Source: Christiangramia sp. (GTDB lineage: Bacteria > Bacteroidota > Bacteroidia > Flavobacteriales > Flavobacteriaceae). From it: a stretch of 54,615 nucleotides of DNA. Below the pieces are notes generated by a model that saw nothing but the letters and a program-made list of their open reading frames with translations, was not told the origin of the DNA and did no database searches. Of this stretch, positions 18,739 to 46,527 are shown piece by piece. The stretch covers positions 1 through 54,615 of the forward strand of contig NZ_JAPYPC010000005.1 in NCBI RefSeq assembly GCF_029937855.1. Direction: 5' to 3'. The first letter of the stretch is position 1, and every line of letters begins with the position of its first letter. Both the position numbers and the translations under genes were made by a program.

Positions 18739-21700
18739 ATGAGAATAGCTATAATAGCTGTGCTCCAGCTATTTGTTACTACGGTATTATGCCAAACGAA
18801 GGAGTATTCTTCCACAGTAATAGATAATGAAGGGCAACCGGTAGCTTTTGCTACTATTAACCAGACAGGAACCGATAACTACACTACTTCAAATGAAAAC
18901 GGTTATTTCACCCTGCAAACAAATTCACGTGAATTTACCCTGAAAATAACTTCCATAGGCTATGAACCTTTGGAGATAAAGATTTCCAACGGAAACTTCC
19001 CCGATCAAATCTTAATGCAAATTTCTTCGGAGGCCCTGGATGAAGTAATCGTTACTGCATTGGGTATCGAAAGAGAAAGACAATCTTTGGTATCTTCGGT
19101 AACCGAAATCGATTCTGAAAAACTGACCGATGTGACCATACCCAATGTGGTAAACAGCCTCGCCGGTCAGGTTGCCGGGGTGCAGATCACCAATGGCGCT
19201 TCTGGCGTTGGTTCTTCTTCCCGAATTGTAATTCGAGGGGAAAATTCTCTTGGTGGCAGTAACCAACCGCTATTCGTAGTAGACGGTGTACCTATTAATA
19301 ACGAACAAATTACCAGCGACCTGGTAAACGATGGTGCTTTACAGGAGGTGGATTACGGGAATGGAGCTTCAGAAATTAGCCCCGACGATATTGCATCCAT
19401 TTCGGTTTTAAAAGGAGCGGGTTCTGCCGCTTTATATGGAACCAGGGCTGCAAATGGTGTTATTCTTATTACTACCAAAAAAGGAAAAAACAATCGTGGC
19501 TTTGGGGTGAGCACCAACAGTTCTCTTACTATTGAAACTTTATTGACCCTCCCGGATTATCAGAACGTGTATGGTGGTGGATCCAACGGTGAATATGCTT
19601 TTGAAAATGGAATTGGCGCCGGCGTAAATGATGGTGGAATTAGCAGTTATGGCCCCAGGTTAGATCAGGGTTTGTTAATCCCGCAATTCGACAGTCCTTC
19701 CGTAGATATTAATGGAAACCCGGTTCGTGGGGGCGATGTAATTGCCCGCACCTTTCCCGATGGTTCTTTTACAGAGATCACTCCTACACCATGGGTTTCA
19801 AGACCAGATAACGTAAGGGATTTCTTTGAAACAGGGGTTACTTACCAGGATAATATCGCTATTAGTTCTGGATGGGAAGAAGGAAGCGCAAGACTCTCTT
19901 ACAGTAGCCTAAGAAATGAAGGCATTCTACCCAATACCGATCTTAAGAGGGACGGGATTTCCATAAGCCTGGACCAGGAACTTTCGGAAGATTTCCGCAT
20001 AAATACCTTCTTAAATTATATAAATACCAGAAGTGGTAACCGGCCAAACCTGGGTTATGGGTACGAAAATGTGATGTATGGTTTTAACTGGACCGGAAGA
20101 CAGACCAATATTGGTTCTTTAAGGGATTACTGGCAGGCCGGTCAGGAAGGCGTGCAGCATTTTGACTTCAACTACTTATGGCTTACCAACCCTTATCTAA
20201 CTCTTTTTGAAAACACCAACAGTTTTGATAAAAATCGCGTATTGGGAAATGTTTCCGCTATCTATGATATCACTGATAAATTAAGCTTAAAGATAAGGGC
20301 CGGACTGGATACTTATAACGATGATCGTGAATTCAGACGAGCGGTAAGTACTAACCGAAATCCAAAAGGAACCTACAGGGAAGACAATGTGAATTTCAGG
20401 GAGCTGAACACAGATTTTTTACTCACCTACCAGGACAGCTTTAATGAGGATTGGAATTATACGCTTACCGCCGGCGGGAACAGGTTCGATCAGCATATCA
20501 AATACCAGTTTGCAGAAGCTTCTCAACTGGCCCTTCCGGGGATCTATACCCTGGCAAATTCGGCAACTCCATTGAAAGGGGATAGCCAGAATTTTGAAAA
20601 AAGGATCAACAGCTTATACGGAACAGGAAATTTAGCCTATAAAGATCAGGTGTATCTTGATCTTACCTTCAGGAATGACTGGAGTAGTACCTTGCCAAGT
20701 GGTGATAACTCCTTCGCTTATTATTCTGCCGGCTTCAGTTATGTAATTTCAAATATGTTCGATCTACCTGAAGACATTTCTTTTCTGAAATTAAGGGGAA
20801 GTGTGGCCAGTGTGGGTAATGATACCGATCCTTACCAAAATGCACAGAACTTTTTATTCAACCAAAACTATGGTTCCAACTTCAGGGTAACCAACGAAAC
20901 CGTTCTTAAGAACATCAATTTAAAGCCAGAAAGGCTCAATGCCTATGAAGCCGGTTTAGAAGCATGGTTTTTCGGCGGAAGACTGCAAACCGATTTTTCA
21001 GCCTATCAAAATGTGAGTATAGACCAGATCATTTCCCGTCCTATCTCCCCTACCAGTGGTTTTCTTAATTATAATGTAAATGGAGGAGAAGTGCGCACGC
21101 GAGGATTTGAAGCAGCGATTAGTGGAGAAATTATCCAGGCACAGGATTTTAGCTGGAAATCGTCTTTAAACTTTTCCACCTATGAAAGTGAAGTCACTGA
21201 ACTGCCTGAAGGGGTTACCCAGTTTGTAACCGGTACTGCCGATGTTTTTGGCGGTTCAGGAGGATCAAATTCCGTTTTCTATATCGCCCGGGAAGGTGGT
21301 AAAGTGGGAGATATGTATGGCACCGGGTTTGTAGAAATTGACGGCCAAACGCTTTATAATTCAAACGGACTTCCGGTACAGGATGGTACCTTAAAATTGC
21401 TGGGGAATTATAACCCAGATTTCATTGTAGGCTTTAATAATAGCTTCAGCTATAAAGATTTTAATCTGAATATTTTATTCGACTGGCGTAAAGGCGGCAC
21501 TATTGTTTCCAGAACAAAAGCCCTGGGAAGTACCTCAGGTGTATTACAGGAAACTCTCGCAGGCCGTGAAAATGGAGTTATTGGAGAAGGAGTTACCAAT
21601 GTGGGCACGCCTGAAAATCCGCAATATGCACCCAATACCACCTCGGTACCTGCAAGCCAGTTCTACAATAATTTCTATGACCGCGGAAATGAAGCCAGTG

Positions 21701-21957
21701 CACTTTACAGCGCTTCTTACGTAAAACTGAGACAGCTAAGCCTTTACTATTCATTTTCAGACAAATTTGTAAAGTCTATAGGATTCCAGAGTTTAAAACT
21801 GGGCTTTGTAGGAAGCAACTTATTATTATTTACCGAAAACCCGCATTTTGATCCGGAACTGAATGCCCTGCAGGGAAGAAATATCGTTTACGGAGTAGAA
21901 GATATGTCATACCCTTCTACCCGTAGCTTTGGAATGAGTTTAAAAACACAATTTTAG
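18739..21957 (+). CDS. SusC/RagA-family TonB-linked outer-membrane transporter
   Basis: 1072 residues. Signal peptide (1-19), a carboxypeptidase-regulatory-like beta sandwich (about 22-90), a TonB plug beginning ALDEVIVTALGIERE and including SALYGTRAANGVILITT, then the 22-strand barrel ending with SFGMSLKTQF. It imports a ligand captured with its SusD lipoprotein across the outer membrane using TonB energy. There is no N-terminal STN domain, so no FecR-type anti-sigma signalling is expected. It is followed after 11 bases by SusD and then by an ABC transporter, nucleoside hydrolase and sugar kinase, not glycoside hydrolases, so the ligand is probably not a polysaccharide. Confidence 0.95.
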   Translation: MRIAIIAVLQLFVTTVLCQTKEYSSTVIDNEGQPVAFATINQTGTDNYTTSNENGYFTLQTNSREFTLKITSIGYEPLEIKISNGNFPDQILMQISSEALDEVIVTALGIERERQSLVSSVTEIDSEKLTDVTIPNVVNSLAGQVAGVQITNGASGVGSSSRIVIRGENSLGGSNQPLFVVDGVPINNEQITSDLVNDGALQEVDYGNGASEISPDDIASISVLKGAGSAALYGTRAANGVILITTKKGKNNRGFGVSTNSSLTIETLLTLPDYQNVYGGGSNGEYAFENGIGAGVNDGGISSYGPRLDQGLLIPQFDSPSVDINGNPVRGGDVIARTFPDGSFTEITPTPWVSRPDNVRDFFETGVTYQDNIAISSGWEEGSARLSYSSLRNEGILPNTDLKRDGISISLDQELSEDFRINTFLNYINTRSGNRPNLGYGYENVMYGFNWTGRQTNIGSLRDYWQAGQEGVQHFDFNYLWLTNPYLTLFENTNSFDKNRVLGNVSAIYDITDKLSLKIRAGLDTYNDDREFRRAVSTNRNPKGTYREDNVNFRELNTDFLLTYQDSFNEDWNYTLTAGGNRFDQHIKYQFAEASQLALPGIYTLANSATPLKGDSQNFEKRINSLYGTGNLAYKDQVYLDLTFRNDWSSTLPSGDNSFAYYSAGFSYVISNMFDLPEDISFLKLRGSVASVGNDTDPYQNAQNFLFNQNYGSNFRVTNETVLKNINLKPERLNAYEAGLEAWFFGGRLQTDFSAYQNVSIDQIISRPISPTSGFLNYNVNGGEVRTRGFEAAISGEIIQAQDFSWKSSLNFSTYESEVTELPEGVTQFVTGTADVFGGSGGSNSVFYIAREGGKVGDMYGTGFVEIDGQTLYNSNGLPVQDGTLKLLGNYNPDFIVGFNNSFSYKDFNLNILFDWRKGGTIVSRTKALGSTSGVLQETLAGRENGVIGEGVTNVGTPENPQYAPNTTSVPASQFYNNFYDRGNEASALYSASYVKLRQLSLYYSFSDKFVKSIGFQSLKLGFVGSNLLLFTENPHFDPELNALQGRNIVYGVEDMSYPSTRSFGMSLKTQF

Positions 21958-21968
21958 AACATACTAAC

Positions 21969-23411
21969 ATGAAAAACATAAAATCAATTATACTTGGATG
22001 TAGCATTTTCAGCTTAGTACTATTTAGCTGCACCAATGATTTTGAAGAGATTAATACAAATCCAAATTCACCGGAAAATGTAGATCCACAGTTCCTGCTG
22101 GCGAATGTAATTTCTGTTCAGGCGAATATGAACACTTATGACCAGGGATTCCGCCTGGCGAATTACCTCGATCAATTCTCGGCCAGTGTAGAATTTGAAC
22201 GAATAGATCGCTATGAAATGGGGTCTAACAGTGGTTACTGGAACAACATATTCAGGTTACAATCAGATATTCGCAGTATGAAAGACCTGCCGGCCTCCAA
22301 CGAAGCTTATGCTGCCGTGGGTGATATTTTAAGAAGTTATCTGTTCTCCCAGTTAACCGATATGTGGGGGGATGTACCCTATACCGAAGCTATTCAGGCC
22401 CTGGACGGGAATTACACTCCAAAATATGACACCCAGGAAAGTATCTATACCAATCCTGAAACAGGAATTCTGGCAGTGCTGAAAAGATCTGCCACCACCC
22501 TGGAGAATACTTCCGCTACCATTAAAGGTGACGTAATGTTTCAGAATGATCTGGACAAATGGGTGCGCTTTGCCAATTCTCTTAGATTGCGCTACCTGAT
22601 GAGAATTAGTAAAAGGTTGAGCGATTATTCTGAAATTCAGGAACTGGCAGATTCAGGCAAACTGATACAATCAAACTCACAGAATGCCGTCGTTCCTTAC
22701 CTGAGCACGGCACCAAACCAGTGGCCGATGTTTCTTTCAGGTCTTGGATTATACCAGGAACATCGTATGACAAAAACGGTAGATTCGGTTCTTACGCTAT
22801 GGAACGATCCCCGTGTTGAAGTACTTTACAAACCCACCCAAAAAAGTGTAAATGATGGAAATCCTCAATATAAAGGATTATTGAACGGGCAAAGTCGGGA
22901 GACCATTAGTTCAAAAGGCATTAACCTAAACGATATTTCCCTTTTTGGCGCCATGTTTCGTGATGTCCCCGATGCTGTGAACGGGCAGTATATGCAATAT
23001 GCTGAAGTTCAATTTGCTCTGGCAGAAGCTGCAGAACGCGGTTTTATAACTCAGGATCCTGAACCTTATTATAAAGAAGCAATCAGAGCCAGTTTTGACT
23101 ATTTTGATGTAGAAGTGCCAGAAGATTATTTTAACAGGGATGCAATCGCACTTGGTGAAGATAATCTCACTAAGATTCTAACTCAAAAATGGCTGAGTCT
23201 AATTAATAATGGACATGAAGCTTGGTTTAACGTGCGTAGAACGGGAATTCCAAATCTTAATCCGGGCCCAGATAATTTGAATGATGATCGCTATCCTGTG
23301 CGTTATCTTTACCCGGAATCTGAACAGGCGACCAATAGAACGAATTATGAGGAGGCTGCAGAGCGTATAGGTGGAGATAACATCAACAGCGAAGGCTGGT
23401 GGGAAATGTAG
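21969..23411 (+). CDS. SusD/RagB-family lipoprotein
   Basis: 480 residues. Lipobox LVLFSC with Cys21, then the SusD-like motif NDFEEINTNPNSPENVDPQFLL. The TPR-like helical scaffold and the closing YPESEQATNRTNYEEA element match the SusD-like_2 group. It sits on the cell surface as the lid of the SusC channel. The ligand-binding aromatic residues cannot be assigned by eye. It is co-transcribed with SusC (11-base gap) and ends before a 400-base stretch of palindromic elements. Confidence 0.94.
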   Translation: MKNIKSIILGCSIFSLVLFSCTNDFEEINTNPNSPENVDPQFLLANVISVQANMNTYDQGFRLANYLDQFSASVEFERIDRYEMGSNSGYWNNIFRLQSDIRSMKDLPASNEAYAAVGDILRSYLFSQLTDMWGDVPYTEAIQALDGNYTPKYDTQESIYTNPETGILAVLKRSATTLENTSATIKGDVMFQNDLDKWVRFANSLRLRYLMRISKRLSDYSEIQELADSGKLIQSNSQNAVVPYLSTAPNQWPMFLSGLGLYQEHRMTKTVDSVLTLWNDPRVEVLYKPTQKSVNDGNPQYKGLLNGQSRETISSKGINLNDISLFGAMFRDVPDAVNGQYMQYAEVQFALAEAAERGFITQDPEPYYKEAIRASFDYFDVEVPEDYFNRDAIALGEDNLTKILTQKWLSLINNGHEAWFNVRRTGIPNLNPGPDNLNDDRYPVRYLYPESEQATNRTNYEEAAERIGGDNINSEGWWEM

Positions 23412-43068: not shown

Positions 43069-43647
43069 TTAATCTAAAATTTCGTAATGGATGGGCTTAA
43101 AACTCCCTCCATTGCTATCTTCTGCAGAACATGCTGTTAGACCTACGAAAAGGTCCATTTTAGCTTCAAAAAGTATATAATCGCCAGCTTTGCTTGTAGG
43201 CGGTTCCACCGTGATTTTACCGAATTTATCAAACTGAACATTCATAAAAATATTGAAAGCGGTAGGAATATCATCAGGCTCGATATCAAATCTCTTTAAA
43301 TTGGAATATAAATTCTCAAAACAACTGGGATGATAATCGGTATTTTTATACATGATCTTAAACGTTTCCGGGCTACATGGAGCCAACAAGAAGTCATTTC
43401 TACCATTGGTATCTTCCAGGATCTCCATCATTTTATTACTCCGATTGCTCCAAATGTAATTCGCCTTGGTAATAAGTATACTTTCTTCAAAATCCATAGT
43501 TTTCCCGCTGGAAATCTTCTCCCTGGTATCGTTCGCATTAAACAAAACCATATCGCTTACCTGTTCTCCCATGGGATCAATTACTTTAAGCAACTTACCT
43601 TTTTCCAGTTTAAAAGCTGCCCCTGTTTGCTTTTCTATAATTTCCAT
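43069..43647 (-). CDS. DUF1989 protein (urea carboxylase-associated family)
   Basis: 192 residues with conserved motifs DFLLAPCSPE (Cys91), HPSCFENL (106-113), FNIFMNV and ACSAEDSNGG near the C-terminus, all typical of DUF1989. The best-studied relatives (CgdA/CgdB) together deiminate carboxyguanidine in guanidine-degrading bacteria. The protein is the last gene of a five-gene operon with a GntA-type enzyme and begins directly after the PaiB-like stop. Only one DUF1989 gene is present and no guanidine carboxylase, so its substrate is likely different but related. No signal peptide. Confidence 0.9.
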   Translation of the reverse strand: MEIIEKQTGAAFKLEKGKLLKVIDPMGEQVSDMVLFNANDTREKISSGKTMDFEESILITKANYIWSNRSNKMMEILEDTNGRNDFLLAPCSPETFKIMYKNTDYHPSCFENLYSNLKRFDIEPDDIPTAFNIFMNVQFDKFGKITVEPPTSKAGDYILFEAKMDLFVGLTACSAEDSNGGSFKPIHYEILD

Positions 43648-44280
43648 CTAGTATTTTTTATTCTGTTCTATCCCGTTTTCTTCTCTAATTGCTTCGGAAA
43701 GATTCTTCTCATTTGCATTTTCAGAATTTTTCAAATGATTCATTGTACTTTTAATATCATGCTCGGCATATCCCTGATGTAATTTGGCAATCCCTTCCAC
43801 TTCGAAGGGTTCAAGCCAAAAACCGGTAATGAGTGGAAGGTGATCTTCAATCATTTTCCGCGGAAGCTCCTTATAAAAAAGAGGATTTTCCTGCTTCTTT
43901 TCAAATTTTTCCACAAGTAAACTAAGCGAATTTTCCAGCTCAGCTGTTGTTTGCAGTTTTATTTTGGCATTCACATGAACCGCAGAATAATCCCAGGTAC
44001 TAATATCCTTTTCCTTATACCAGGATGAAGAAACATAGGCATTTGCTCCATGGAAAATTACCAGAGCTTCCGCTCCATCTTTTAAAAACTTGAGTTGTTC
44101 GTTATGATTGGCTATATGGGCATAGAGTTTCCAGTTGTTAGCATTCCCATCGATAAGTACCGGAATATGAGTAGCCAGCAGCCTATTCCCATTTATAACA
44201 AAACTTGCAAAAGGATGATTTTGAATAAATGAAAAAATAAATTCTTTATCATCCTTTCGGTATTGGGGAGGTCTATACAT
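43648..44280 (-). CDS. PaiB-like FMN-binding split-barrel protein
   Basis: 210 residues. Family motifs: MYRPPQYRKDD at the N-terminus, HPFASFVI (22-29), ATHIPVL, HGANAYVSSSWY (77-88) and STWDYSAVHVNAKI (94-107), then HLPLITGFWLEPFEV. Related to Bacillus PaiB, called a transcriptional regulator but structurally an FMN-binding flavin reductase-like split barrel. Placed between a heme N-hydroxylase homologue and a DUF1989 enzyme, it may supply or accept electrons, or act on the same compound; this is inference. It follows the GntA-like gene with a 2-base gap. Confidence 0.92.
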   Translation of the reverse strand: MYRPPQYRKDDKEFIFSFIQNHPFASFVINGNRLLATHIPVLIDGNANNWKLYAHIANHNEQLKFLKDGAEALVIFHGANAYVSSSWYKEKDISTWDYSAVHVNAKIKLQTTAELENSLSLLVEKFEKKQENPLFYKELPRKMIEDHLPLITGFWLEPFEVEGIAKLHQGYAEHDIKSTMNHLKNSENANEKNLSEAIREENGIEQNKKY

Positions 44281-44282
44281 AA

Positions 44283-44978
44283 TTACTTTTTGCTATGAAA
44301 AGGACATTTCCACTCCTTGTCTACTTTTCTTCCACTATATTGTTTCGTTTCACTACTATTACCAAAATCCTCTAACATAGGATTAATTTCTCCCTGTAAT
44401 TCCCTGTCTCGTTCCCGTATTTTATTACGAACATTTTCATAAGTTCCCATTTCCCGCAATTTTTCAAACTGCCAGTGCAGGTTAAATGCGATTGCTGTAT
44501 ATGGAGTTTGCCTGGCAATTCTTGAAGCATTAGGATGCAAACCAACAATATAAAAAGCTTTCCCTCCAAGACTAAAGCTGAAATTTTTGTTTTCCGTATC
44601 TTTACTAACTTCAGGATCCCATTCTTTTTTATCTATATTATGAAGGTTTTGAAGTTGCTTCCAAAGAATTTTTTCAAATTGAATTTCGGAATATTCAGGA
44701 GAATCTGGAAATACCGCCAGAAATGTTTGAAAATCGTTCGATCCAAAATCGTAATTTGATACATACGTTTCCAAATCTACGATGAGTTTCTTTGCAGTTT
44801 CAATACTCCCGAAATCCTCATAAGTCTTTAACACCACTTTATCCATACTAAAAACGGTTTGAGCCATAATGCATGGATGATCATGCTTCAGAACAAAGTT
44901 CTCAAACTCCTTTTTAATATTTCCGTCATCGCGGTTTAGCGTATATTTCTTCTTTTTATTTCTATTCTTAACTTCCAT
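44283..44978 (-). CDS. GntA/YqcI-YcgG family heme-dependent N-hydroxylase homologue
   Basis: 231 residues. The conserved family blocks are present: HPCIMAQ (34-40), FYIVGLHPNASRIAR (142-156), FNLHWQFEKLR (165-175) and the C-terminal SGRKVDKEWKCPF (215-227). Characterised members are heme-dependent oxygenases that N-hydroxylate guanidino amino acids: GntA acts on L-enduracididine in guanitoxin biosynthesis, and the related DcsA makes N-hydroxyarginine for D-cycloserine. It lacks a signal peptide, so it is cytosolic. Operon partners (PaiB-like and DUF1989 proteins) support a guanidine-group pathway. Actual substrate unknown. Confidence 0.88.
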   Translation of the reverse strand: MEVKNRNKKKKYTLNRDDGNIKKEFENFVLKHDHPCIMAQTVFSMDKVVLKTYEDFGSIETAKKLIVDLETYVSNYDFGSNDFQTFLAVFPDSPEYSEIQFEKILWKQLQNLHNIDKKEWDPEVSKDTENKNFSFSLGGKAFYIVGLHPNASRIARQTPYTAIAFNLHWQFEKLREMGTYENVRNKIRERDRELQGEINPMLEDFGNSSETKQYSGRKVDKEWKCPFHSKK

Positions 44979-44988
44979 TCCTTTTATA

Positions 44989-45510
44989 TTATCTTTTCAC
45001 TCCCTTTATCAACCACTCTTCAATTTCTTCATCCATATCGCCGGTATGTAAAACAGAGATATCTCCGGTAGCCTCAAAGACAACGGCCCTTACCTCTTTT
45101 ATCCTTAGCACATTCGCCTCTCTTAATTTAGACCTAAGATCGTCCTCGGTTACCCGCGCTTTTTTTAAATTATGATATAAGACCTCCTTACCATCCATCA
45201 ACATTAATGGGGCATTGTCTACGGCATTCCTTACCAACTTATATCTTCTTAGTATTGCTACGGAAAGCTGAAGAAGATAGATGGCTCCCAGACCAATAAT
45301 TCCTTCCCATAAACTCACACTTTTAGATAACACAGTGGTCGCTATCATAGATCCTAATGCCACCGTCATGGCAAAGTCAAAACTGGACATTTTTGAGAAG
45401 CTCCTTTTTCCCGCAATACGTGTGTATATAATAATAGCTATATAAATTCCAACCGCAGTTAGAACTATTGCCAACATCGATTCAAGGTTAAAAGCAAACC
45501 ATTTTTCCAT
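44989..45510 (-). CDS. DUF421 membrane protein (YetF-like)
   Basis: 173 residues. Three N-terminal membrane helices (about 10-32, 42-60, 68-86) with the family motif RIAGKRSFSKMSSFDFAMTVALGS, then a cytosolic alpha/beta domain with DNAPLMLMDGKEVLYHNLKKAR. DUF421 proteins have no settled function; some appear to be linked with stress. It sits between the SDR and the GntA-like gene with gaps of 9 and 10 bases, so it belongs to the same operon. Confidence 0.9.
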   Translation of the reverse strand: MEKWFAFNLESMLAIVLTAVGIYIAIIIYTRIAGKRSFSKMSSFDFAMTVALGSMIATTVLSKSVSLWEGIIGLGAIYLLQLSVAILRRYKLVRNAVDNAPLMLMDGKEVLYHNLKKARVTEDDLRSKLREANVLRIKEVRAVVFEATGDISVLHTGDMDEEIEEWLIKGVKR

Positions 45511-45519
45511 CCTAATTAA

Positions 45520-46368
45520 TTAACTACCTATTATTTCCCCTCCATTTACATGAATTACCTGTCCTGTTATATAACTACTATCTTCCGAAGCTAAAAAAAC
45601 ATATGCAGGCCCTACTTCACTGGGTTGACCTGCCCTGCCCATCGGAACTTTTTTTCCAAAATCTGAAATATCATTAAATGTAGAAGGTATGAGTGGGGTC
45701 CAAATTGGGCCGGGAGCTACCGCGTTTACCCTTATATTTTTATCTACCAGCATTTTAGATAGCGACCGCGTAAAACTGACTATAGCTCCTTTAGTACTGG
45801 AATAATCAAGAAGATGTTCGCTCCCGCGATAGGCTGTAACCGAAGTAGTATTGATTATTACCCCTCCTTTTTTTAAATGATCAAGAGCTTTTTTAACGAT
45901 ATAAAAATATGGGTAAAGATTAGTGTCAAAAGTTTTTCTGAACTGGCTTGAACTAATATCCTCCACTTCTCCTTTCGGGAATTGCATGGCAGCATTATTC
46001 ACAAGGATGTCTAGTTTTTCAAAATGACCTATAAAGATTTCTACCAACTCCTTACAAAAATCCTCTTCTTTCAGATCCCCGTGAATCAATAAGCACTCTT
46101 TCCCTTCTTTTTTAACCAGCTCTTTTGTCTTTTGGGCGTCTTCTTCCTCGTCTAAATAGACAATTCCAATATCGGCACCCTCTCTGGCAAAATGAACAGC
46201 AACACTCCTGCCTATTCCACTATCTCCACCAGTTATTAGAACCGCTTTCCCTTCTAATTTACCACTTCCTTTATAATTATCCCTGATAATTTCCGGCTCG
46301 GGATTCATCTTAAATTCATCGCCCGGCTGTTCCTGATCCTGTGGAGGAAATTCCTTATTTTTACTCAT
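45520..46368 (-). CDS. SDR-family oxidoreductase, YhdF/YghA-like
   Basis: 282 residues. A hydrophilic leader (about 40 residues, KEFPPQDQEQPG) precedes the cofactor motif GGDSGIG, then DILVNNAAMQ, NTTSVTAYRG and YSSTKGAIV (catalytic Tyr/Lys), ending SSYITGQVIHVNGGEI. The leader and composition match the YghA/YhdF/glucose-dehydrogenase-like general stress SDR group. First gene of the five-gene operon, 9 bases before DUF421. It may act on the same pathway or be a stress enzyme. Confidence 0.93.
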   Translation of the reverse strand: MSKNKEFPPQDQEQPGDEFKMNPEPEIIRDNYKGSGKLEGKAVLITGGDSGIGRSVAVHFAREGADIGIVYLDEEEDAQKTKELVKKEGKECLLIHGDLKEEDFCKELVEIFIGHFEKLDILVNNAAMQFPKGEVEDISSSQFRKTFDTNLYPYFYIVKKALDHLKKGGVIINTTSVTAYRGSEHLLDYSSTKGAIVSFTRSLSKMLVDKNIRVNAVAPGPIWTPLIPSTFNDISDFGKKVPMGRAGQPSEVGPAYVFLASEDSSYITGQVIHVNGGEIIGS

Positions 46369-46527
46369 GACAATTCCAGCTTGTTAATTACTCAACTCAA
46401 AAAATCTAAATTACAAAGCGATCTTTCTAATTAAATGTTAAGCATTCATAATGATTTCTAAATCTTAGCAGAAGAGAGCAAAACCGCTAAAAAATAGTTC
46501 GTATGGATTAATTCGATAAGTTTGAAT

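What the first reader, a model, noticed from the sequence alone, without database searches (positions are those of the whole stretch)
43069..46368. Five-gene operon pairing a GntA-type heme N-hydroxylase homologue with PaiB-like and DUF1989 proteins
Gaps between the genes are 0-10 bases, so SDR, DUF421, GntA-like, PaiB-like and DUF1989 genes are one transcript. GntA/DcsA-type enzymes N-hydroxylate guanidino groups, and DUF1989 enzymes (CgdAB) deiminate carboxyguanidine. Both are guanidine-group enzymes in characterised systems. A flavin split-barrel protein sits between them as possible redox partner. No guanidine carboxylase or urea amidolyase is nearby, so this is not the known guanidine degradation pathway. 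It may make or degrade an N-hydroxyguanidine, releasing a hydroxylated or nitrosyl product.
Basis: partly seen in the sequence, partly recalled or inferred. Interest (0 to 1): 0.8.

Follow-up and report, generated by a model that had tools for sequence, protein, structure and literature searches.

The report
Heme hydroxylase and DUF1989 gene pair
In these bacteria a heme enzyme that probably adds an oxygen to a nitrogen of an arginine-like molecule is nearly always encoded beside one particular metal enzyme, so the two probably form an undescribed two-step pathway, often placed among stress-protection genes.

The parts
44283..44978 (-). GntA-type YqcI/YcgG protein, 231 aa: predicted thiolate-ligated heme N-hydroxylase; core gene 1
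43069..43647 (-). DUF1989 protein, 192 aa, pair-type: predicted metal-dependent hydrolase or lyase; core gene 2
43648..44280 (-). FMN_bind_2 (PaiB-like) protein, 210 aa; accessory, between the core genes in one part of Bacteroidota
   Evidence: PF04299 140 bits; between the core genes in 21 of 80 genome loci
44989..45510 (-). DUF421/YetF membrane protein, 173 aa; accessory
   Evidence: PF04239 and PF20730; a relative in 10 of 20 evenly drawn pair loci and 0 of 37 control stretches
45520..46368 (-). SDR oxidoreductase (PRK06701 type), 282 aa; accessory, first gene
   Evidence: NF005214 441.7 bits, cut-off 413; a relative in 7 of 20 pair loci and 0 of 37 control stretches
46369..46521 (.). 153-base gap between the divergent SDR and GDPD genes, the likely promoter region of the operon
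   Evidence: position only; no promoter was shown

Best explanation
The core is a conserved two-gene module. Step 1 (inferred from fold and residues): the GntA-type protein binds heme through Cys36 and N-hydroxylates a guanidine-bearing metabolite, most likely arginine or a simple derivative, with electrons from general cellular reductases. Step 2 (inferred from the family): the DUF1989 protein, with a metal held by Cys91, Cys109 and Cys173, cleaves the N-hydroxylated guanidine, most likely by hydrolysis of a C-N bond, which would release hydroxylamine, ammonia or a hydroxyurea-type fragment. Shown here: the two genes are strongly linked in position and in occurrence, and each protein keeps the active-site framework of its family. 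In Flavobacteriaceae the pair sits among stress-type genes, so a role in stress protection, or in clearing a metabolite made under stress, is likely. SDR, YetF and PaiB are companions in part of the lineages.
For: Pairing: 78 of 80 named-genome loci. In evenly drawn genomes, centre genomes left out, 48 of 52 GntA-type genes have DUF1989 just downstream on the same strand (3-659 bases between the matched domains): Pseudomonadota 21 of 22, Flavobacteriaceae 21 of 22, Actinomycetota 4 of 6, Bacteroidia 2 of 2. Orphans: L136 and L172 lie in genomes with a complete pair elsewhere, L038's genome has a pair-type DUF1989 elsewhere (350 bits), L039's MAG has a full pair on another contig, L021. Gene overlap in 44 of 87 scored pairs, 27 by exactly 4 bases (the start codon taken was the ATG nearest the stop, which favours short gaps). 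Distance matrices of the two proteins correlate, r 0.76 over 114 loci, 0 of 2000 permutations as high. Tree: GntA-type rows split from other YcgG rows at 99% SH-aLRT. Chemistry: AglA fold; in 62 of 62 rows C36, R156 and F171 match AglA C44, R166 and F182, and position 143 is F or Y where AglA has F152; the roles of these AglA residues are given in PMC12866846. DUF1989 metal site complete in 47 of 47. Stress context 15 of 20 against 0 of 37; 11 of 14 if the six test loci that also served to choose the markers are dropped.
Against: No activity, heme or metal was measured. The AglA residues that touch the guanidine water and the substrate carbonyl, Q177 and R179, are N166 and H168 in 62 of 62, so the substrate may differ, and may not be a guanidine. 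AglA's K196, R200 and loop L2 lie beyond the aligned part and were not tested. Outside Bacteroidota few neighbours recur: an SDR in 6 of 45 loci, others in 3, so the stress role rests mostly on one family. An Actinomycetota lineage (L011, L202, L203) has GntA-type genes without DUF1989 nearby. Fisher and permutation values treat related genomes as independent.
Confidence: 0.5

Rival explanations
1. DUF1989 works like its relative in trimethylamine N-oxide demethylase (Tdm): it binds the N-oxygenated product and splits the neighbouring C-N bond, so that an internally N-hydroxylated arginine would give an aldehyde and a free guanidine.
For: All 47 pair-type rows match the Tdm model at E 0.001 or better, far below its cut-off (window 73.6 of 1100 bits); D32 is invariant, and the Tdm-like His (H106) is kept in 43 of 47 but is Met or Leu in 30 of 30 UAAP2-like proteins; Tdm acts on an N-oxide.
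Against: The acid that PMC12560246 proposes as iron ligand (Tdm D346, three residues after the last cysteine) falls at position 176, which is E in 25 of 47, then L 6, P 5, G 5; the Tdm C-terminal domain is missing.
Confidence: 0.14
2. The pair makes nitric oxide or nitroxyl from arginine without a classical NO synthase: GntA makes N-omega-hydroxyarginine and the metal in DUF1989 oxidises it.
For: No NO synthase match in this genome; stress-gene neighbourhood; hydroxylation of free arginine by the family member ChmN.
Confidence: 0.1
3. The pair detoxifies or recycles a damaging guanidine or N-hydroxyguanidine compound, with the DUF1989 step first or independent of the heme step.
For: Patchy, partly plasmid-borne distribution and stress neighbours; in genome G299 the pair-type DUF1989 gene lies away from the GntA gene.
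Against: Order GntA then DUF1989 in 78 of 80 loci, which fits but does not prove step order; no riboswitch in 19 loci; the only recurring transporter seen is a PQ-loop protein in Bacteroidota.
Confidence: 0.16
4. It is a natural-product or guanitoxin-type biosynthetic cluster, as the NCBIfam name suggests.
For: NF041366 matches 62 of 62 rows at E 0.001 or better and the window protein above its cut-off.
Against: No biosynthetic families among 20 window proteins scanned, and none recurs around the pair; the constant partner is DUF1989.
Confidence: 0.03

Closest known systems
AglA, ChmN, DcsA, GntA, AmbT and Mhr24: YqcI/YcgG heme guanidine N-hydroxylases (PMC12866846, PMC10849742)
   Same: Same Pfam family; the model has the AglA fold and the heme cysteine is conserved
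   Different: Those work in natural-product pathways; AglA is about 16% identical; here the constant partner is DUF1989 and two substrate-contact residues differ
ChmN with the SznF-like ChmM (chalkophomycin), and DcsA with DcsB (cycloserine; DcsB is recalled, not from a call)
   Same: Same logic: a YqcI/YcgG hydroxylase coupled to a second enzyme proposed to process the hydroxylated arginine
   Different: The second enzyme is of another family; no NRPS or SznF-like family showed up among the neighbours identified
Carboxyguanidine deiminase CgdAB of the guanidine carboxylase pathway (DUF1989; UAAP1/UAAP2)
   Same: DUF1989 family; UAAP2-like proteins share C91, C109, C173 and D32 in 30 of 30
   Different: Single gene, not a tandem; partners score 273-354 bits to the pair-type profile (170 for one cut by a contig end) against 45-127 for 60 tandem proteins from the 30 best-scoring other Pseudomonadota loci; no carboxylase in the genome
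Trimethylamine N-oxide demethylase Tdm (DUF1989 domain)
   Same: Three cysteines and Asp kept, His in most
   Different: No GcvT-like domain; the proposed iron-ligand acid is not conserved

Membership tests
YqcI/YcgG heme N-hydroxylases | PF08892 above its curated cut-off | tested here: met
   215.3 bits, cut-off 27
YqcI/YcgG heme N-hydroxylases | AglA-type sandwich fold | tested here: met
YqcI/YcgG heme N-hydroxylases | Axial heme cysteine | tested here: met
   C36 aligned with AglA C44, 62 of 62 rows
YqcI/YcgG heme N-hydroxylases | Heme binding and guanidine N-hydroxylation | not testable with these tools
   needs protein
GntA of guanitoxin biosynthesis | NF041366 above its cut-off | tested here: met
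   323 bits, cut-off 145
GntA of guanitoxin biosynthesis | Guanitoxin pathway genes nearby | tested here: not met
   Pfam scan of 20 window proteins between 27714 and 53476 shows no PLP enzyme, 2OG oxygenase or methyltransferase; not every ORF was scanned, the rest of the genome was not searched, and the pathway's gene set is recalled
Carboxyguanidine deiminase CgdAB / UAAP1-UAAP2 | NCBIfam TIGR03424 or TIGR03425 above cut-off | tested here: not met
   108.9 of 284.7 and 74.7 of 205.95 bits; control: 4 of 4 tandem proteins pass TIGR03424 and their 4 neighbours pass TIGR03425
Carboxyguanidine deiminase CgdAB / UAAP1-UAAP2 | Two tandem DUF1989 genes with a carboxylase | tested here: not met
   One DUF1989 match in the genome, no match above the TIGR02712 cut-off
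DUF1989 metalloproteins | Fold and three-cysteine zinc site | tested here: met
Trimethylamine N-oxide demethylase | NF053776 above cut-off and a GcvT-like domain | tested here: not met
   73.6 of 1100 bits; the protein is 192 aa with DUF1989 as its only Pfam family
Nitric oxide synthase | PF02898 match | tested here: not met
   No match in the genome at E 0.001; PF02898 not listed for the GntA protein

The most novel reading that the evidence does not exclude
A self-contained two-enzyme pathway, spread by horizontal transfer through at least five phyla, turns arginine into N-hydroxyarginine with a P450-like but unrelated heme protein and then splits it with a DUF1989 metalloenzyme to release a reactive nitrogen species (nitroxyl, nitric oxide or hydroxylamine) as part of a general stress response. 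It would be the main natural role of the GntA-type YqcI/YcgG branch, and natural-product roles would be derived.
Probability: 0.15. Interest if true: 0.87.

Novelty: new variant of a known kind. Interest (0 to 1): 0.62.

Why it matters
The YqcI/YcgG enzymes with a known reaction come from natural-product pathways, yet in the evenly drawn genomes searched here 48 of 57 family members stand in one fixed pair with DUF1989. That makes the pair the likely main role of this branch, names the second enzyme to test, and makes an unknown arginine or guanidine pathway directly testable with two small proteins. It also shows that the name 'guanitoxin biosynthesis GntA', which NCBI annotation gives to these genes in ordinary bacteria, is misleading: a toxin pathway is not implied.

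Tried and rejected
Guanidine riboswitch control: no Rfam match in the window; in 19 loci only two tRNAs. Natural fusion of the two proteins: none in the frames of 126 sources, that is 125 loci and a window stretch. A PDB hit for the single GntA sequence: nothing credible; the profiles found AglA. Gramibactin GrbD as a DUF1989 protein: rejected, it is SznF-like. A conserved context outside Bacteroidota: little found; an SDR in 6 of 45 loci, and aldehyde dehydrogenase, malate synthase, BLUF, DUF2243 and others in 3 each (L005, of Bacteroidota, was among the 45 by mistake, and some high counts were antisense frames inside DUF1989). First gene calling failed on GC-rich loci (one search recovered 101 GntA genes) and was redone, where 4 loci still had no GntA gene. 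(PF00208 in the own genome) had no bearing on the question. In one search the column headed bits is wrong; bits were recomputed.

Limits. The A4 profile was built partly from rows it then scores, so its bits for paired proteins are biased upward. The unpaired DUF1989 proteins it was held against are those of the 30 Pseudomonadota loci with the best Pfam scores (plus L105 and L261); the other unpaired matches were not scored. In the tree 50 of 57 GntA-type rows count as paired, one of them (L081_629) only through a DUF1989 gene that belongs to the second GntA gene of that locus, and one (L010) with a cut-short DUF1989. A3 holds 62 of the 81 non-redundant GntA rows (80 and the window), three of them unpaired.

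Rows dropped before counts: one search leaves out the centre genomes G295 and G299; the 48 of 52 count also leaves out G296 and G000 and keeps only genes above 200 bits to A1, so it drops L138, L146, L147, L168 and L171, none with DUF1989 beside it; with those five put back it is 48 of 57. One search scored 87 of 115 pairs for overlap. One search used 20 of the 21 non-centre Flavobacteriaceae genomes with a GntA-type gene (G1098 left out, contig end), controls from 19 of these, and dropped one short control (L309); two requested stretches did not exist. Six of its 20 test loci are also among the named loci from which the marker genes were picked; without them 11 of 14 against 0 of 37.

Papers seen: PMC12866846 parts 1 and 2 of 7 plus passages; passages only of PMC12560246, PMC10849742, PMC12508155, PMC12186494, PMC11271267 and PMC11410670; all others search listings only, of which one search listed 20 of 39 and 20 of 23. 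A search on DcsA and DcsB found no paper on the pathway's enzymes that I opened. Schneider 2020 was not held. Statements on DcsB and on YetF, DUF892 and the SDR as stress-linked are recalled.
Full report
Observation. The five genes are present at the stated coordinates, on the minus strand, with gaps of 9, 10, 2 and 0 bases. Pfam and NCBIfam confirm SDR, DUF421/YetF, YqcI_YcgG (GntA type), FMN_bind_2 (PaiB type) and DUF1989. The block is closed by plus-strand genes on both sides. The genome (3.9 Mb, 99.89% complete) has one YqcI_YcgG and one DUF1989 match, no match above the urea carboxylase cut-off and no NO synthase match. In the tree the window's GntA lies among Bacteroidota rows, mostly Flavobacteriaceae.

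The conserved unit is a pair. In the window's class YqcI_YcgG is rare, 3 of 295 genomes including the window's own, and both others carry DUF1989 directly downstream. A scan of named genomes gave 80 loci (the best 80 of 567 relatives, so ranked by likeness to the query), and 78 have DUF1989 downstream on the same strand, 54 within 200 bases, 20 more within 1000 and 4 further off. PaiB stands between the two core genes in 21 of 80 and all five genes occur in the window's order in 7 of 80. On plasmids, 29 records match. Of the 12 opened, 8 carry a GntA-type gene (L005-L012), and 7 of these are followed by DUF1989, the one in L010 cut short by a stop; L013, L014 and L015 have other YcgG types with no DUF1989 annotated, and L016 has no annotation and was not analysed.

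Evenly drawn genomes remove the bias of a likeness-ranked list. With centre genomes left out, GntA-type genes have DUF1989 just downstream in 21 of 22 (Pseudomonadota, 397 genomes), 21 of 22 (Flavobacteriaceae, 198), 4 of 6 (Actinomycetota, 295) and 2 of 2 (Bacteroidia, 294): 48 of 52. Counting every YqcI_YcgG match, also the divergent and sub-threshold ones, it is 48 of 57. By genome content alone the two families go together with Fisher p 5e-25 in Flavobacteriaceae (21 both, 2 YqcI_YcgG only, 1 DUF1989 only, 174 neither) and 4e-13 in Pseudomonadota (21, 0, 88, 288). Four orphan GntA-type genes, L136, L172, L038 and L039, lie in genomes with a partner elsewhere. An Actinomycetota lineage, L011, L202 and L203, has none nearby; their whole genomes were not searched for DUF1989.

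The genes overlap in 44 of 87 scored pairs, 27 by exactly 4 bases, which suggests translational coupling; the start codon taken was the ATG nearest to the stop, which favours short gaps. The distance matrices of the two proteins correlate at r 0.76 over 114 loci (0 of 2000 permutations as high). Organism phylogeny contributes to this and was not removed. In the tree GntA-type rows separate from other YcgG rows at 99% SH-aLRT, and the paired state needs 5 changes against 12.0 in shuffles. Pairs are seen in Bacteroidota, Pseudomonadota, Deinococcota, Actinomycetota and Gemmatimonadota.

Context. In an evenly drawn Flavobacteriaceae set, 15 of 20 pair loci have at least one of DUF421, PRK06701-type SDR, KatE catalase, DNA ligase D or DUF892 within the fetched 16.6 kb, against 0 of 37 stretches of like length from 19 of the same genomes (p 7e-10). 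The markers were picked from the named GntA loci, and six test loci are also among those; without them it is 11 of 14 (p 8e-9). Singly, DUF421 is in 10 of 20, SDR 7, DUF892 5, KatE 3 and LigD 2, and KatE and LigD alone are weak (p 0.04 and 0.12). A PQ-loop transporter is in 9 of 20 and PaiB in 5 of 20. Outside Bacteroidota the most frequent neighbour beyond DUF1989 is an SDR, in 6 of 45 loci. That KatE and LigD serve in stress is established knowledge; calling YetF, DUF892 and this SDR stress-linked is recalled.

What is known. In the held library, searches for DUF1989, YcgG, guanitoxin with GntA, urea carboxylase-associated with GntA, pre-guanitoxin, urea amidolyase associated, and the accessions PF09347, PF08892 and IPR014988 gave no paper that, from its listing or the passages I read, describes the pair. 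Two listings were capped, and most subscription papers, including Schneider 2020, are not held. The nearest logic is ChmN with ChmM, where a YqcI/YcgG enzyme dihydroxylates arginine and an SznF-like enzyme is proposed to follow.

Verdict. The two genes as one pathway: very likely. Heme-dependent N-oxygenation: likely. Guanidine substrate: more likely than not. Hydrolytic cleavage by DUF1989: the best single guess, not shown.

Noticed in passing
L196:5931-8807 (minus strand): A GntA-type gene without DUF1989 is followed by a small-domain methyltransferase and a histidine-specific methyltransferase (Methyltransf_33) gene; it may be a separate small biosynthetic cluster, in a genome that also has a normal pair.
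   Followed up: partly
L013:3932-7873, L015:3881-6230, L197:6123-8723: YcgG proteins outside the GntA branch sit next to amino acid permease genes, with LysE and a 2OG oxygenase (L013) or a cupin (L015), which fits an amino acid substrate for that branch.
   Followed up: no
L077:7599-7937 and 28 other Bacteroidota loci: A PQ-loop/MtN3 transporter gene lies near GntA in 29 loci, mostly directly upstream on the same strand; the window's operon has no room for it.
   Followed up: partly
L010:4623-5114: On a Hymenobacter plasmid the DUF1989 frame behind GntA ends early at a stop, a possible decayed partner.
   Followed up: no
window:35355-39421: A sugar-use cluster on the minus strand: PfkB kinase, glycosyl hydrolase family 32 and a sugar transporter; by eye, SusC/SusD-like genes lie at 18739-23411.
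   Followed up: partly
L203:7073-8666: An Actinomycetota GntA-type gene without DUF1989 lies next to an aminoacyl-tRNA editing domain gene.
   Followed up: no
L204:4890-12827: A divergent YcgG gene of Flavobacteriaceae (42 bits to the GntA profile) lies near what look by eye like transposase and polysaccharide genes and without DUF1989.
   Followed up: no
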